Assembly (NCBI GenBank): GCA_038087015.1 | Contig: JASBNA010000019.1 | Span: forward strand, 558,001 to 622,000 | Direction: 5' to 3' | DNA: 64,000 bases | Source of the DNA: Cerrena zonata | Lineage: Eukaryota > Basidiomycota > Agaricomycetes > Polyporales > Cerrenaceae | Shown here: positions 21,260-54,696 of the stretch, in pieces | Position numbering within the stretch: the first letter of the stretch is position 1 | Layout: the number at the start of each line of letters is the position of its first letter | Notes under the pieces: model-generated | What the model saw: only the letters and a program-made list of their open reading frames with translations | What the model was told of the DNA's origin: nothing | The model's database searches: none | Translations under genes and position numbers: made by a program

Positions 21260-21778
21260 ATGTCATGAAAAACCGAGTCGATCGACGTATTCAGGCGAGC
21301 ACCTACAGCAACGTTGTGTCCTCAGTATTTTGTTCTACATCAATGGACTGGGTCCGCGCGGCTCGCCTGATGCTATGATTCGTCGAGGTCATTGTGGACG
21401 GCAAACATTGAGGATAGCTCTCGAAGACAGCATCGAGAACATGTCACAGTGGACGTGTCAATCAGAGAACTGTCATAGGATATTGCACCCAAGTATAGCC
21501 CGACTACAACCGATTACAACGCCAGACAGGTTAGTTGATATATAAATCAAATATTTGTAGATGAGTTGAATGGTGTTTTTGAAGTTGTTTATTCAGTTGC
21601 GCAAGAAGGAGGTAAGAGGTAAGAGGTGAGTGCGTAAGCAATTTATATCAAGTGTCGGCGTCTGATAGAAACAAAATGCGTTTGTAGTCCTTACAGCGAC
21701 CACAGTAACGTTTTCTTTCACCATAATCTGCCTGACCTAGACGATAAAACATTCACGAATATTTCTCACTGAATCATC
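21260..21778. other. Divergent intergenic region
   Basis: It may contain a first exon of the minus-strand membrane protein. GAGGTAAGAGGT short repeats occur near 21609-21628. Otherwise I see the promoter of the co-chaperone gene only. Confidence 0.3.
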
Positions 21779-23859: not shown

Positions 23860-25442
23860 AAGACCCGGACATGATGTCTCATAGAAATCTCCTGCTGGTA
23901 TATCTCAGCCTTGTTTCCATAGTTGCTTTCCTTGTCTCCTTGTTGCTTACCATATGCATTTGTGTTATGTTTTCATGTTTTCCCGTTTCGCCCTCCCGGT
24001 ATTTTTGCGGTCGAGCTCATCATAGGCAAGTGCTCATTTTGACGGTAACGATATCTGACCCCTACTGTGCTACTGACGACTTCTTTTCTCTCAGTCGTCC
24101 CTCAAGCTCCCTCTTCTTGGTGCGTGAAATAATACTCCAACCATCAGATTTCGTTCCTCACCGCATTCAATACTTGCGCAGACCTCTATCCCACCTGCCG
24201 TCGCCCGTCCTAATGGCCGAAATCCGATAACAAACAGGTTAATCATGAGAATAGCGCTTTAGGTAAGTGAAGGATTTGCTAGTAACCTGTGATCCTCATT
24301 TTTCCCGTCATAATTCAAACAGAGAACTCTCAAGGCCTGTGTTCATTGAGAGCCGTTGTCCTACTTGTTGCAGCCGTTGATAGGATCCCGCAAAGGGAAT
24401 AAAAAGTTATCTCGGTCGCAGTAACCGGACCCGCACGACAAAACCTCAGCACTTTATGTAAGTGATACTAGATTTTCCCTGCTAACCATCTGCTGTTGCC
24501 TTTCTCGTTATCAGCGTGGGCAGCTCTTCCGAACTAACGTGTGTATGTCGTGTTTACTGAGGTGTTGACGGTACTGCATATTCGATTTTCTGGAGTTCAC
24601 GATACTACAAGTGAGTGTGACGTGCTCGAAAAAAAATCACATCACCAATTGTACGTTTCTCTTGCAGTGGGTAATGCGTTTCCCAGCTGATTTTGATCTC
24701 TTTCTCGAAGCTTCAAACCTTCTCTGAAAATTACACCGTCACTCCAGATCCCTTAACTCAGATCTCACAGGGACGGTGATATCTTCGTAAGGAACCAACT
24801 CCATCTTCACGCTTCTCGCATTTCGGACATTACTTTTCCTCATCGATTATTTGAGCCGGCCGCTCAAAGATAATCTAAACTCCGTCACATGTGTGCCAAT
24901 GTGTATCATGCTGCAGGGTACCGTCCTCATGTACGTTCTCGTGGTTTTTTATATGAAACTTCTCTAACGTTGCGCTCATGAGAAGTGAGCCTTGACCGCC
25001 CTCAGTTTCCATCGGAAATACAAACATCATCTGTGAAAACCGGCCGAGAAAAATGCTCGTCATTATTCACCTCTGCAGTGTTCCTCACAATTCATTTCAT
25101 AGCCGAGAACGAAAGTCGTGTTAGTCAAGCCTACATTCTACATCAACTCGTGATAATCCAATGTCTTATCCTTGGTGTTCCTAGCCCGAGTCGAGTTAGC
25201 CAGTTTCATTGCGTCAATCGTCATTCATATCGATATCGGTAAATGTTGGTGACGTAGAGTTACTGAAATGCTGGCAATCTTTTACAGGACCACAAGTGCT
25301 AGGCAAACAGGTCCAACTCCAATTTGCATCTGAGACTGGTACGTTATGTTTCCGTATTCTTAGTTTTGTTACTCCAGCAGTAATGAAAGCCTCAAGACAG
25401 AGTCGAGTAATCCCTATCAATAACAAAGCAGAGACCGCCATA
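23860..25442. other. Long intergenic stretch before the tRNA gene
   Basis: About 1.6 kb. There are several GTAAGT-like and CAG sites but no frame joins into a recognisable protein, so an untranslated or very small transcript cannot be excluded. No repeats of note. Confidence 0.35.
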
Positions 25443-26591: not shown

Positions 26592-29329
26592 ATGTCTAAG
26601 ATACCTGCCTTCGCAGAAATTGACCAGCTGGTCTCATTAATAACCTCATCTGTTGAAACTATCAAGACACAATACGCCTCACTTGCTTCAAACCCTTCCA
26701 CGTTGGATCTTTCTCTCGACTCCACTGCCAAACATCCCCTCGACCTCAAAGCGGTACCCTCTGCGCTCCAGGATGCTTTCCGCACTCTCCAAGGATCTTG
26801 CGCCCAGCTGGAAAACATTGTGCTTCCACCTGCGTACACTATTGCCAGCGTATGTTGCTTTGTCTCATGCTTCAATCGGTTTCGTACTCAGTGCTGTGTC
26901 CCGATCATCCCTTGTTAGCTGTCTATGAATGTAAGTAACATATCCTCTGACGTCGACCATGTTGTAATCTCATTTCCCTCGTAGCATTTTACAGCTTCGT
27001 GTCTCAACGTGGCCGTCACCTCTAAACTGGCCGACCATTTACTTCCGGCGGGCCCTCAAGGTCTGCAAGTAAACAAACTCAGCAAATTGACCGGCATCAT
27101 CCCGAACAAGCTTAGCAGGGTGCTAAGGCTACTGGCCCACAAAGGATGCTTCAAGGAAGGTTAGTCCTATCCCGTTTGTAGATACTAGCCCCGTCATTGA
27201 TTAACATTTCACCTTCCCGATGTAGTTGAGCCTGACGTTTGGGCGAACAATCGTCTTAGCATGGAACTACTCTCTCAACAGCCCACAAGTGCGCTTGTAG
27301 GTCTCTTGTACGTATCACCAGGTCTTGTCTCTGGACAGTAGCGTGCTGACAATTCCCGCAATGATGGTTTCCCTGATAGTACGGATGAAGCTTATGTCGC
27401 CGGAACAACCCTCTCTTCGACACTTACCGACTCACACTACGGACCGTCCGTTCAGCTCAATGAGGCATCATGGAACCGTGCTATGAATTTTACAGGCACG
27501 TTGTGGGATTTCTATCAAAACGTCGATCCTGCACGAGGCCTGCGATTAGCGGAGGCGCAGATTGGCTACTGCCATGTACTAACGTTTGAAAGTGTCTTAC
27601 ACGGTGCGCCCAATCATTCTCACGTCCTCTTTCTGGCCGCATGGTATGAATGGATCTCATGACTTCGCTTTCAGGGTATCCCTTCAAGGATTTACCTACA
27701 GGCACCACAATTTGTGATCTTGGCGGCGGTTTCGGTCACGTCTCCATGCATATAGCTAAAGCTTGTCCTCAACTTCGAATCATTCTTCAAGACCAGCCCG
27801 GAACCATTGCTGCGGCCAAGTCATATTGGGAGAAGGGGGCCCCAGAAGTCGTTCGCGAGGGAAGAGTGGAGTTTATCGCAATCGATTTTATCACCCAGGT
27901 CCCGAAGCAGGGATGCGACTATTACTTCGTAAGTACTTAGTCGGTTTTTTTCGCACTTCGCATTGACAGGTGCCCATATTCCGCTTTTGGACAGATAAAG
28001 AACGTTGTCACGGCACGCAGGACGCTGTCTGACCGAGGGACAGACGGAGTACCGATTTGATCAAAGAGTGGGGATTTTCATCCTGCTCTGTCGGTCTGCC
28101 AGAAATAATAATAAATTTACAATATGTTACATAACCAGACTTCAAGTCTGTCAACGATTCATGTTTGATTACATAGACAGAATTAATATTACAATCTTTC
28201 CGCAGGATAAAGTTCTTTGCAAATTCCAAATCTTTGCAGCGGACAGATTGTTTTTTCCCATTCAATTGTGTAATCTGTCTTGGGAACCGATTCAGTATCC
28301 CTCTTTGAGTCTGTACAATAGGAAAATTGGGTTACTAATTGAAAATATGGTATCAAATCTTATCAATATACAGACTTGAAGTCTGGTTATGTAACATATT
28401 GTAAATTTATTATTATTTCTGACAGACCGACAGAGCAGGATGAAAATCCCCACTCTTTGATCAAATCGGTACTCCGTCTGTCCCCCGGTCAGACAGCGTC
28501 CTGCGCGCCGTGTGTGTGAGTTGGTTCCTTCCATTTTTGTAGTACATTCTGATTGTAAATTTCTGTAGGCATGATTGGCCAGACCATGATGTGGTCACAA
28601 TCTTATCAAATGTGAAGAAGGCGATGAAACCAACTTCACATGTTCTGATCCGTAAGTTCTCCGCTTTTGCCTCGTGGTGCGTAAATCGACATCTGGCCAA
28701 CTCACCTTGATGTGATAGACGAGTTTGTCATGCGATACGCGTCTAAGGATCCCGGATCTGAGGATGGCATCTTGAACAAGGTAACATACTTTCACACAAC
28801 TCACCTACCATCCTGATAAAGTACTGACATTCATCGATCCTATCATAGGCCCCTGAGCCTTTGCTCCCTAGTTATGGCGAAGGCCGGATTCTTCAATATT
28901 ACCTAGATATTGGAGTAAGTCGAATCGATCGATTATCGCGACTCAACGCATACTGACAATTACACTCACAGATGATGGTAAGCATGGGGCCGTTCTCGTA
29001 AAAGAGACAGTGACTCAATTTTACATCTTGTGATCAGAGTGTCGTAAATGCGAAAGAACGCACCCTCTCCGAATTCAAAGCGATTGCGTACGTTTTAATT
29101 CCCTTTATGCTTCATGGTACTGAACAACACATTGGCGGTCACGTCACACAGCGCCCAAGTTGGTCTCGAGCTAGACAAAGTGTGGGATTCAGGCTTGATG
29201 AACACCGTCGACTTCAAGCTCGGTGAATCACAATCTTCAGCACTACTTGGCAATCATAAGACCTCTTCAAAGACGCAACTCACTAGTGTCCTCACTGCTG
29301 CTGTCCCCGAACCCAAGACACATGCTTAA
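26592..29329 (+). CDS. SAM-dependent O-methyltransferase, interrupted by a MITE and a frame problem
   Basis: Recognisable exons are 26592-26849, a 12-base microexon 26919-26930 (LSMN), 26985-27159, 27226-27307, 27380 to about 27570, about 27650-27928, 27995-28008, then 28570 onward to TAA 29327-29329. The N-terminal part is the helical dimerisation and winged-helix-like region of class I fungal O-methyltransferases (CLNVAVTSKLADHL, NKLSRVLRLLAHKGCF). The SAM pocket is ICDLGGGFGHVSM, followed by LQDQPG, and the active-site strand IKNVV-HDWPDHDVV is complete only if 28008 is spliced to 28570. Two problems stand out. The frame between 27570 and 27650 cannot be joined by a normal intron. A 504-base inverted-repeat element also sits exactly at the 28008 donor. 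The gene may be inactive or alternatively spliced. The substrate is unknown. Confidence 0.75.
28009..28512. mobile_element. 504-base MITE with 143-base terminal inverted repeats
   Basis: The left arm 28009-28151 and right arm 28370-28512 are inverted copies of equal length with only a handful of mismatches. They begin CACGGCACGCAGG and end with its complement. The direct repeat TGT (28006-28008 and 28513-28515) flanks it as a 3-base target duplication. The interior (about 218 bases, AT-rich) has no coding capacity. A non-autonomous DNA transposon is the straightforward reading; the 3-base duplication resembles PIF/Harbinger-type elements, but the family is not proven. Confidence 0.85.
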
Positions 29330-51834: not shown

Positions 51835-54696
51835 ATGAATCCTGGACAATTTGGCGGGCCACCCCTTCCTGAGGGTGGCTATGATGAGGGTAATATTCAA
51901 GTTAATCACACTTTACGCATACCTCCGGGACACTATCTCTCACAACAACCTTTCCAAGGATATCCCTACTCACAAGAGCAATCTCATCTGCCTTTATGGT
52001 CATCATCATACTTCCCACAATCGGAGTTTTCCATGGGGTCATCTCAGCAGCCTTTGTACCACGCCCCGTGGACATCTTATCTCCCAGGCCGTATTGTCGA
52101 CTCTAGTCCCCATTCTACAGTTTACGATCTTCAAGATGACCCCGTTCAAGTGCCTCGAAAGCGTAAGTTGACTAGGACGGAGACCCCGTGTAGAGACCTC
52201 ATCCGCAGGAGGGATGCTACAATATTACCCGATGCCCATCTCCAACATGAATTTTCTCCCGGGACGAATTCTAATGATGATGCCTTGAAGAGGACAAGGG
52301 TGAAGGGTAAAGCTGTGGATCGCTCCAAGGTCAAGACGAATGCCGAGGATGAAGACCGCTCTTCCAAGAATCCCGCTAGCAAGAAGAAGCTGAACGAGCG
52401 TTTTGCAGAATTGGTTATCGCAAAGAATACTGTACGTTGAAGCTATACTTGGTATACGTATCATTTGGATATTACTGATTGTCTTATTTATGCTAGATGA
52501 TCCAGTCTATGGAACGTCCCGAGCTCCAAAGCTTACTACTTGGGAAAAGATTCCAACATCGAGAATGTCATCAGCCAAAAGGCAACAGTATCGTTCGCAA
52601 ATTTGGCTGAAGATATCGGTATAAGTAATATAATTTTCGTATTACAGCTGCCTGAATACTCACCACGATTTAGAAATCGCTCGGCGACATTTCCGTCACC
52701 TATGACTGTTGGTCCGATCCGCAGCTTGGTGGCTTCATGGCCGTCACAGCTCACTGGTGTGAAGAAACAGCAACCGGTGATCTAACGATTCGCTCTGAGC
52801 TTGTGGCTTTGAAATATGCACGAGGCGTTGATTCAATTGCCAGCCTCGCGAAGCAATCTGTCCAAATTCTCCAGAGATTGGGTCCGAATGTGATAAACAA
52901 GGTATATATCTTGCAGTTAATGCTGTCTATTCGGGCTCAGAGACATATATTTAGATTGGCACAATCACTGCTGGCGATAGTGCCAACAATGACGAGATGC
53001 TTTGGTTTGTGACTGAGGTACTGAAACTGGATGTGCCTGAGCATCATTTAAGGTATCGTGTCAAATTTCTCATTTCCAACCGAATTAGATGATAACATTC
53101 ATGACTTCGTACAGCTGCTTCTCTCGCGCACTCAACATAGCAATGCAAACTGGGCTTCAAGCCGATGAGCTGGTTGAACTGATAGAGAAGGCCACCAATG
53201 GCAATCGTGTAGTCGTGAACGCATCTCTATCCAATGCATGTCATCCAGAAGTACAGAAGCTTGCCGTCGAATTGTCTCCAGGATCGAGCAGACAGTTCGT
53301 TTTGTCTACAACTCGTTACGAGTTTCCGCATACGGACACAGGATGGGGGAAAATGTTATTTTTACTGGAACGTCTCCTTGACATGCAATCGGTACGTTAT
53401 AGAAATCGTTCTCCTTAAATACTTTAGCTAACTCTTTGGATCAACGTTAGGTGATATGCGACTCCTTGACCAACAAAATCACTCCTGACGTGGCCCGAGA
53501 CCAGTTGAACGATGGTGACTGGTCCACCTTGCGTGATATCAGGGATTGGTTGAGAATCGCCCATCAAACTCAATCCTCAATGAATTTCAAAGACTGCGGG
53601 ACCACCTCGCGCATGTTTACGGTATATAATGAGCTCAAACGCAAATTCCGTGCAATTCGAGACAAGAAACCAATCCTAACCCCTGCTATTGATGCATCTA
53701 TCTTTGCCTTTGATCAATTCAAAGAGGTGATGTGGCTAAATTTCGAGATGAAGAAAATTTACAATTACTCTTTTGAGTACGCAATTACCAAGCGGGTCGA
53801 TTCATACATGTTCTCCATGAGTAAGTCAGGATGATCTTCCTCGCTTCGACTGAAAACTGATCATGGCCTATTACTAGTTATTAATCCAACCATCAAATTT
53901 TCATACTTCACGGAAGAGGGTGAAAAGGATGTAGATACAATCCGCAAACACTTTGTCGACTTGGTGAAACATTTTTCTCTGCATGGATATGAATAATGAC
54001 TCACCGATGTCTTTATAGATGCTGGAGAAGGAACCCAAAGCAAGAAAGCTTAGTGTAAGTCTCAAGGATCATGGCTTCCTCGGAATTAGGCTGCTCATGC
54101 CCCAATCTCACAGGAATCGGATAATAACATATCTGAAGTTGTGACAGAAGAAGTTGAAAAGGAGGACCGGGATCGAATGGAAGCTGAGCTGGATAACTAT
54201 TTGGATCTAGATATTAGGGTGCACGAAGCAAATCTTGATCTCCTCGCTTTTTGGAAGGTGCGTCCGTTCGTACGAGATTGTAAACAATAATGCAATCTGA
54301 CACTCTATGATATCCTAGGCATACCAGAAGGATTTCCCTCATATCTATGCTATTGCACTTGATCTGCTGCCCATCCAAGTATCAGCGGTCTCCTGCGAAC
54401 GGGTATTCACAAGGAGCGATGGACTCGACTCCCTTCTCAATGATAGGATGTCTTTCGGAATCTTCGAAATCCTCCAGCATCTCAAATATTCTGGTGGGAA
54501 AGCTAACCTGTATGACACCGTATGGAGTAATTTGGATATTGAGGATGCACTCAAGCCATCCTCTCCGCCAAGGAAATGCACGTTGTCTGCTCTGCTTGAA
54601 TCCCTTGCGGATGCGGAATACGACTATGATTTAGATGATCCTGCTATCAGCTATTTTCCTGTCGACGAAGTCGACGAGGAGGCCGACTCGGACTGA
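51835..54696 (+). pseudogene. hAT-transposase-derived gene 1, with probable frameshift
   Basis: ATG 51835 opens a Pro/Gln/Tyr-rich leader (MNPGQFGGPPLPEGG) and basic KKKLNERFAELVIAKNT, spliced to MIQSMERPELQSLL. Then a frame change occurs near 52520-52545 (continuing WEKIPTSRM in another frame). After that hAT blocks are in order: SLGDISVTYDCWSDPQLGGF and MAVTAHWCEE (catalytic-core start), CFSRALNIAMQTGL, QFVLSTTRYEF, RLLDMQS, and the C-terminal dimerisation region LAFWKAYQKDFPHIYAIALDLLP with VSAVSCERVF and RMSFGIFEILQHLK. The tail is acidic (EVDEEADSD). No BED finger is visible, unlike gene 2. No TIR flanks it. It is either an old transposase relic or a domesticated gene. Confidence 0.6.

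What the first reader, a model, noticed from the sequence alone, without database searches (positions are those of the whole stretch)
28006..28515. MITE inserted exactly at a splice donor of an O-methyltransferase
Removing the element and one TGT copy leaves GTTGT followed by GTGAGT, an ordinary exon end and donor. The element therefore split the exon/donor border of the intron that separates IKNV from HDWPDH. The TGT duplication restores a copy of the exon end before the surviving GTGAGT. If that donor is used, the 507 added bases (divisible by three) become exonic, but a TGA follows within about 17 codons. It is a natural experiment in donor capture and gene decay.
Basis: partly seen in the sequence, partly recalled or inferred. 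Interest (0 to 1): 0.75.

Follow-up and report, generated by a model that had tools for sequence, protein, structure and literature searches.

The report
Recent mobile-element insertion in methyltransferase gene
A short mobile DNA element jumped into the last bases of a tiny exon of a fungal methyltransferase gene and probably disabled that copy, while a near-identical copy without the element sits elsewhere in the same assembly; a clean but ordinary event.

Summary
Window 28009-28512 is a 504-bp foldback element with CACGG..CCGTG ends and a TGT duplication. The genome (Cerrena zonata, by a database name) holds at least ten copies; all eight with both ends have 3-bp duplications, and one is 504/504 identical to this copy. 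Contig C109 carries the clean empty site GAACGTTGT|GTGAGT in an intact 13-exon PF00891 O-methyltransferase gene. C109 looks like the other haplotype: mostly 93-98% identical by block, with a 32-kb inversion, but 99.9% identical around the insertion, so the jump is recent. The hit exon is only 14 nt. Because of the duplication, the following 53-nt intron keeps its donor; nothing needs capturing. The expected transcript includes the element and stops at TGA 28058-28060, before the conserved His-Asp-Trp. The deposited protein QCA50_011199 ends exactly there, but its basis is unknown and no RNA data were available. Ends, duplications and subterminal repeats fit fungal EnSpm-like elements; no transposase partner was found. 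Verdict: a recent, probably null insertion allele with an in-assembly control; ordinary, but useful for allele-specific RNA tests. In passing: DUF6589, in an element nested in another copy, looks like a transposase.

The parts
26592..29329 (+). O-methyltransferase gene (PF00891), 13 exons; 487 aa in the empty version
   Evidence: gene model with GT..AG introns; PF00891 E 2.2e-24; 77% identical to a Somion occarium protein
27995..28008 (+). 14-nt microexon 7 (ATAAAGAACGTTGT) whose end was hit
   Evidence: gene model; IKNVV also in P0002
28006..28008 (+). left copy of the TGT target-site duplication
28009..28512 (.). 504-bp foldback element (MITE), EnSpm-like termini CACGG..CCGTG
   Evidence: ten copies of 300 bp or more in the genome; 8 of 8 two-ended copies with 3-bp TSD
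28009..28151 (.). left terminal arm, 143 nt (weaker pairing continues to about 28198)
28370..28512 (.). right terminal arm, 143 nt
28027..28028 (+). only GT in 27996-28568 that would keep the frame open (adds 6 aa); very weak donor, score -1.6
   Evidence: 1 of 40 GT sites
28058..28060 (+). in-frame TGA inside the element if it is exonised (codon 357)
   Evidence: deposited protein P0003 ends here
28513..28515 (+). right copy of the TGT target-site duplication; regenerated exon end
28516..28568 (+). intron 7, 53 nt, intact, donor GTGAGT
28569..28651 (+). exon 8, begins with the last base of a Val codon followed by HDWPDH

Best explanation
A non-autonomous EnSpm-like DNA transposon (a MITE) recently inserted into one haplotype of an O-methyltransferase gene, at the last three bases (TGT) of the 14-nt exon 7. 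Shown: the element, its copies, the duplication, the empty counterpart and the reading frame. Inferred: the introns are short (53-72 nt) and probably recognised as units, so introns 6 and 7 are still removed. Exon 7 then grows from 14 to 521 nt and translation stops at TGA 28058-28060. The product lacks the conserved His-Asp-Trp and about the last 30% of the protein, and the message may also be degraded, since six introns lie downstream of the stop. This version is most likely null; the other haplotype is intact.
For: Clean empty site in C109 with one TGT. Eight of eight two-ended copies with 3-bp TSDs. 504/504 identity to the C39 copy. Near-identical flanks: 16 mismatches in 12,429 aligned bases over the 1-kb bins 22k-34k, against 459 of 7,953 over bins 13k-20k (sums of rows, indels not counted). 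Donor 28516 is the best of 40 GT sites. The deposited protein QCA50_011199, from a contig of the same length as C19 (668,626 bp), ends ...IKNVVTARRTLSDRGTDGVPI. All 12 other proteins that I aligned (of 120 listed) keep H-[DN]-W at this place.
Against: No RNA data. The deposited protein is a gene model of unknown basis. The arms form an extreme hairpin in RNA, which could impair the donor right beside it. That C109 is the other nucleus's haplotype, not a duplicate or a strain mixture, is inferred from assembly only.
Confidence: 0.8

Rival explanations
1. Microexon skipping: the 521-nt hairpin-bearing exon is not recognised, and exon 6 is spliced directly to exon 8.
For: 14-nt exons are easily skipped (general knowledge); a strong hairpin sits beside the donor.
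Against: Both flanking introns keep their own splice sites, and introns of 53-72 nt are usually recognised as units in fungi (general knowledge). The outcome would also be null: stop at codon 337.
Confidence: 0.17
2. Cryptic splicing rescue: the weak donor at 28027 is spliced to 28569, giving an in-frame protein with 6 added residues (TARRTL) before HDWPDH, as in maize Spm alleles where element ends serve as intron ends.
For: It is the only one of 40 GT sites that keeps the frame open. CACTA ends are reported to act sometimes as splice sites (PMC4219821, passages).
Against: Donor score -1.6 against 5.2-10.4 for the gene's other donors and 8.3 for 28516 (small matrix).
Confidence: 0.05
3. C109 is not the allelic haplotype but a segmental duplicate, so the fungus keeps two full loci and the insertion hit a redundant copy.
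For: For eight of nine other insertion flanks no second full-length match was found in the assembly, so it is mostly haploid. C109 differs by a 32-kb inversion.
Against: C109 matches C19 in blocks of 92.9-97.6% (99.5-99.97% near the insertion) over most of its first 52.8 kb, flanks included, as expected of a haplotype contig left in a dikaryon assembly. The last 27.9 kb of C109 lie beyond the part of C19 that I compared.
Confidence: 0.15

Closest known systems
Fungal EnSpm elements (CMCT clade) as described in PMC12730594
   Same: CAC..GTG termini and 3-bp TSDs, given there for families of Puccinia striiformis (passages)
   Different: No transposase partner identified here; the element itself is 504 bp and foldback
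Maize Spm-suppressible and soybean TgmR CACTA alleles (PMC4219821)
   Same: CACTA-type elements in or near introns and splice borders that affect transcript processing (passages)
   Different: Fungal host; the ends here carry no good splice site; no RNA or activity evidence
Introners (PMC9860276)
   Same: Short elements, some with TIRs and TSDs, inserted in genes; TSDs may supply splice sites (passages)
   Different: This copy is not predicted to create an intron: it lengthens an exon beside an existing intron
PlavakaA/PlavakaB (PMC12730594)
   Same: Same CMCT clade, 2-3 bp TSDs; Plavaka domain matches abound in this genome (147)
   Different: Termini TGT..ACA or CATCA..TGATG (passages), not CACGG

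Membership tests
MITE (non-autonomous DNA transposon) | short element with terminal inverted repeats, several copies of the same length with TSDs | tested here: met
   seven uninterrupted copies, all 504 bp; 8 of 8 two-ended copies with TSD
Fungal EnSpm-like (CMCT) | termini 5'-CAC..GTG-3' | tested here: met
   CACGG..CCGTG; definition from passages of PMC12730594. One truncated copy (C11) begins CATGG
Fungal EnSpm-like (CMCT) | 3-bp target-site duplication | tested here: met
   TGT, TTA, CCA, TCA, AAG, TAC, AAA, ATA: 8 of 8
Fungal EnSpm-like (CMCT) | subterminal repeats | tested here: met
   GACAG/CTGTC 7 times in bases 1-361, 0.51 expected from 2,000 mononucleotide shuffles. That this is a hallmark is recalled, not from a definition in a call
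Fungal EnSpm-like (CMCT) | mobilised by an EnSpm/CACTA transposase whose element shares the ends | tested here: inconclusive
   12 PF02992 matches, none close to a matching end by coordinates, but their surroundings could not be fetched; larger relatives at C2, C5, C8, C48 share one end, no second end found for C8, no family in 4 of 6 ORFs scanned from C2
Strict CACTA (TIR with core CACTA) | CACTA in the TIR | tested here: not met
   CACGG; definition from the abstract start of PMC1636069 in a search listing
PlavakaA/B | TGT..ACA or CATCA..TGATG termini | tested here: not met
   CACGG..CCGTG; definition from passages
PIF/Harbinger | TWA target duplication | tested here: not met
   only 1 of 8 TSDs (TTA) has the form TWA; definition from passages of PMC4482050
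Introner | insertion creates a new, spliced intron | not testable with these tools
   no RNA data; the sequence predicts exon extension instead

The most novel reading that the evidence does not exclude
The insertion makes an Spm-type conditionally processed allele in a mushroom. The exonised 143-bp foldback and the transposase-binding subterminal repeats decide whether introns 6 and 7 are spliced, and the transcribed hairpin yields small RNAs that silence the element's own family, with the intact allele in the same cells as a built-in control.
Probability: 0.05. Interest if true: 0.55.

Novelty: new member of a known kind. Interest (0 to 1): 0.3.

Why it matters
It is a clean, recent and probably heterozygous insertion allele. 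Element, duplication and empty counterpart are all present in one assembly, and the coding sequence is identical in both versions. That makes allele-specific splicing and decay of an exonised hairpin directly measurable in a fungus. As an event, a MITE disrupting a gene, it is ordinary.

Tried and rejected
Autonomous partner inside C46: the 6.8-kb stretch between two element ends at C46:107148-113969 first looked like the autonomous element. It is a MITE copy (TSD TAC) with a different 6.3-kb DUF6589/helicase element inserted in it; rejected as partner.

Plavaka as partner: a PF18759 fragment lies 8.6-9.5 kb from a related end at C8:143645-143670. It lies outside the 5.48 kb that C8 and C2 share, no second end was found within 17 kb (best 15 of 26 positions), and published Plavaka termini differ; not accepted. 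Two Plavaka places (C62, C110) were fetched to read their ends but were 99.98% identical over the whole 9.8 kb compared, so no ends could be seen. The distant relatives at C17 and C19:80528 (74-75% over about 150 bp) gave no family in the one ORF scanned.

Targeting of splice sites: no sign. The TSDs have no common sequence, and 96 of 2,228 possible 3-nt targets in this gene (4.3%) touch a splice border. At the seven other two-ended sites the longest spanning ORF lay at the 8th to 55th percentile of its own surroundings. That test is weak: at the window site, which is in an exon, the longest spanning ORF was a chance antisense one.

The first gene model began exon 9 one base early and lost the frame; corrected. 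Rfam: no match at gathering thresholds in 27900-28600. Papers: no Cerrena zonata genome paper among the 4 found; no fungal parallel noticed in the rows listed. PMC9674265 was seen in passages and not used as evidence. No age in years is given, because no mutation rate came from a call.

Full report
What is there. Window 28009-28512 is a 504-bp element flanked by TGT on both sides. Its ends form an inverted repeat of 190 nt, 87% complementary, with 3 mismatches in the outer 140 nt. Folded as RNA with its surroundings it gives one very long hairpin (z -23.3; 0 of 20 shuffles as stable). The window lies on a 668,626-bp contig (C19) of a 55.5-Mb assembly. A deposited protein from a contig of that exact length is named hypothetical protein QCA50_011199 [Cerrena zonata], a polypore of the Cerrenaceae.

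Family. Ten places in the genome carry 300 bp or more of the element (the tool gives such counts as lower bounds). Eight have both ends: seven uninterrupted, and one on C46 split by another transposon. Two (C20, C11) have one end only. All eight two-ended copies have identical 3-bp flanks: TGT, TTA, CCA, TCA, AAG, TAC, AAA, ATA. The window copy is identical over 504 of 504 bases to the C39 copy. It differs at 7, 9 and 10 positions from the C19:218277, C10 and C31 copies, at 10 from the C46 copy and at 35 from each of the C14 and C5 copies. The window and C39 copies share variants that none of the six others has (positions 73, 195, 279, 414, 498), so they are recent siblings.

Empty site. The string GAACGTTGTGTGAGTTGG occurs once in the genome, at C109:41389-41406. 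C109 (80.7 kb) aligns with C19 over window -289 to 32178 in the same orientation, and on both sides of that in inverted orientation. The two thus differ by an inversion of about 32.5 kb, or by an assembly error of that shape. C109 beyond base 52,818 was not compared, because the matching part of C19 was not fetched. Divergence varies along the region: 459 of 7,953 aligned bases in the 1-kb bins 13k-20k and 352 of 4,903 in bins 36k-40k, about 1-2% in bins 8k-12k, but 16 of 12,429 in bins 22k-34k, which include the gene. All 13 exons of the gene are present unchanged on C109. I read C109 as the other haplotype of a dikaryon; the insertion is then younger than the near-identical block. A second empty counterpart exists for the C14 copy, at C14:597.5 kb, with a single AAA. 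The other eight of nine flanks tested had no second full-length match in the assembly; the C10 flank had two partial ones at 83-87%. So polymorphism of those copies could not be tested.

The gene. The empty-version model has 13 exons and 487 codons before the stop and matches PF00891 (E 2.2e-24). The closest full-length protein listed is from Somion occarium, same family Cerrenaceae, 77% identical. The closest solved structure by sequence is 8pha (E 2.8e-84). Three exons are tiny: 12, 14 and 6 nt, and the Somion protein has corresponding residues. The element hit the end of the 14-nt exon 7. The following exon begins with the codons of His-Asp-Trp, kept as H-[DN]-W in all 12 other proteins that I aligned, chosen from 120 listed. 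That this His is the catalytic base in this enzyme class is recalled, not from a call.

How it most likely works. Because the TGT was duplicated, the 53-nt intron 28516-28568 is complete. Its donor TGT|GTGAGT scores 8.3 on a matrix made from this gene's 12 donors, itself included; the other eleven score 5.2-10.4 and the next best of 40 GT sites in the stretch scores 5.9. Intron 6 is untouched. Introns here are 53-72 nt, a size at which fungi usually recognise introns as units (general knowledge). So the default prediction is that exon 7 becomes 521 nt and translation ends at TGA 28058-28060, after ...IKNVVTARRTLSDRGTDGVPI. The deposited protein ends with exactly these residues. That shows that a gene predictor chose this reading; whether transcripts supported it is not known. 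Skipping exon 7 stops at codon 337. Only 1 of 40 GT sites could keep the frame, at 28027, and it is very weak (-1.6). The likely outcomes are therefore null for this version. Nonsense-mediated decay is plausible but untested.

The interpretation needs two changes: the intron's donor was never lost, so there is nothing to capture, and the 'decay' concerns one of two versions. Landing at a splice border is not remarkable: 4.3% of possible 3-nt targets in this intron-rich gene touch one.

Classification. PMC12730594 (passages) takes CAC..GTG termini with 3-bp TSDs as consistent with EnSpm in Puccinia, and gives other termini for PlavakaA and B. The element fits EnSpm-like, with repeated GACAG/CTGTC (7 in the first 361 bases, 0.51 expected), but its ends are CACGG, not CACTA. 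No transposase could be tied to it. Four larger places (C2, C5, C8, C48) share a related end. The C8 and C2 ones are 99.8% alike over 5.48 kb, and the C8 end is 80% identical to the MITE end over 66 bp. Four of the six ORFs of 120 aa or more on the C2 stretch were scanned and matched no Pfam family.

Papers: seen as passages only were PMC12730594, PMC9674265, PMC9860276, PMC4219821 and PMC4482050; PMC1636069 only as the start of its abstract in a listing.

Noticed in passing
L016:1185-7493 (C46:107184-113492); C4 about 1663724-1670032; C12 about 192924-201798: Transposon family encoding DUF6589 (and, in C46, a DEAD-box helicase-like protein) with CAGGCTCC.. ends, 341-bp TIRs in C46 and 9-bp TSDs; the predicted DUF6589 fold resembles P element, Hermes and RAG1-type transposases. 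DUF6589 is 'unknown function' in Pfam.
   Followed up: partly
window -289 to 32178 versus C109:13340-45060: About 32.5-kb inversion between the two versions of this region, with a nearly identical block (window 22-35 kb) running across the right breakpoint.
   Followed up: partly
C109:34108-34930, at window 21623-21630: 823-bp insertion in C109 with ends GGGACAACCGCTGAT..ATCAGCGGTGGTCCC and an 8-bp duplication GAGGTGAG; absent from the window.
   Followed up: no
window 24968-24973: C109 has 88 bp more than the window here, with a 6-bp repeat CGTTGC at the borders; looks like a microhomology deletion in the window version or an insertion in C109.
   Followed up: no
L050 (C14:597300-598100) and L017: A stretch of C14 occurs twice about 100 kb apart at 99.6-99.8%, once with and once without a MITE copy.
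   Followed up: partly
window 26919-26930, 27995-28008, 28972-28977: Three microexons (12, 14 and 6 nt) in one O-methyltransferase gene, supported by a relative's protein.
   Followed up: partly
C2:2666227, C5:2059688, C8:143670, C48:12879: Four places share an end CACGGCACGCATGACGCC related to the MITE end; C8 and C2 are 99.8% alike over 5.48 kb; no opposite end found for C8, the others not examined for one beyond the pattern search.
   Followed up: partly
P0003, QCA50_011199: The deposited gene model is a truncated 268-aa protein whose last 16 residues are translated transposon; no full-length protein of the intact C109 version appeared among the 120 hits listed of 259.
   Followed up: partly
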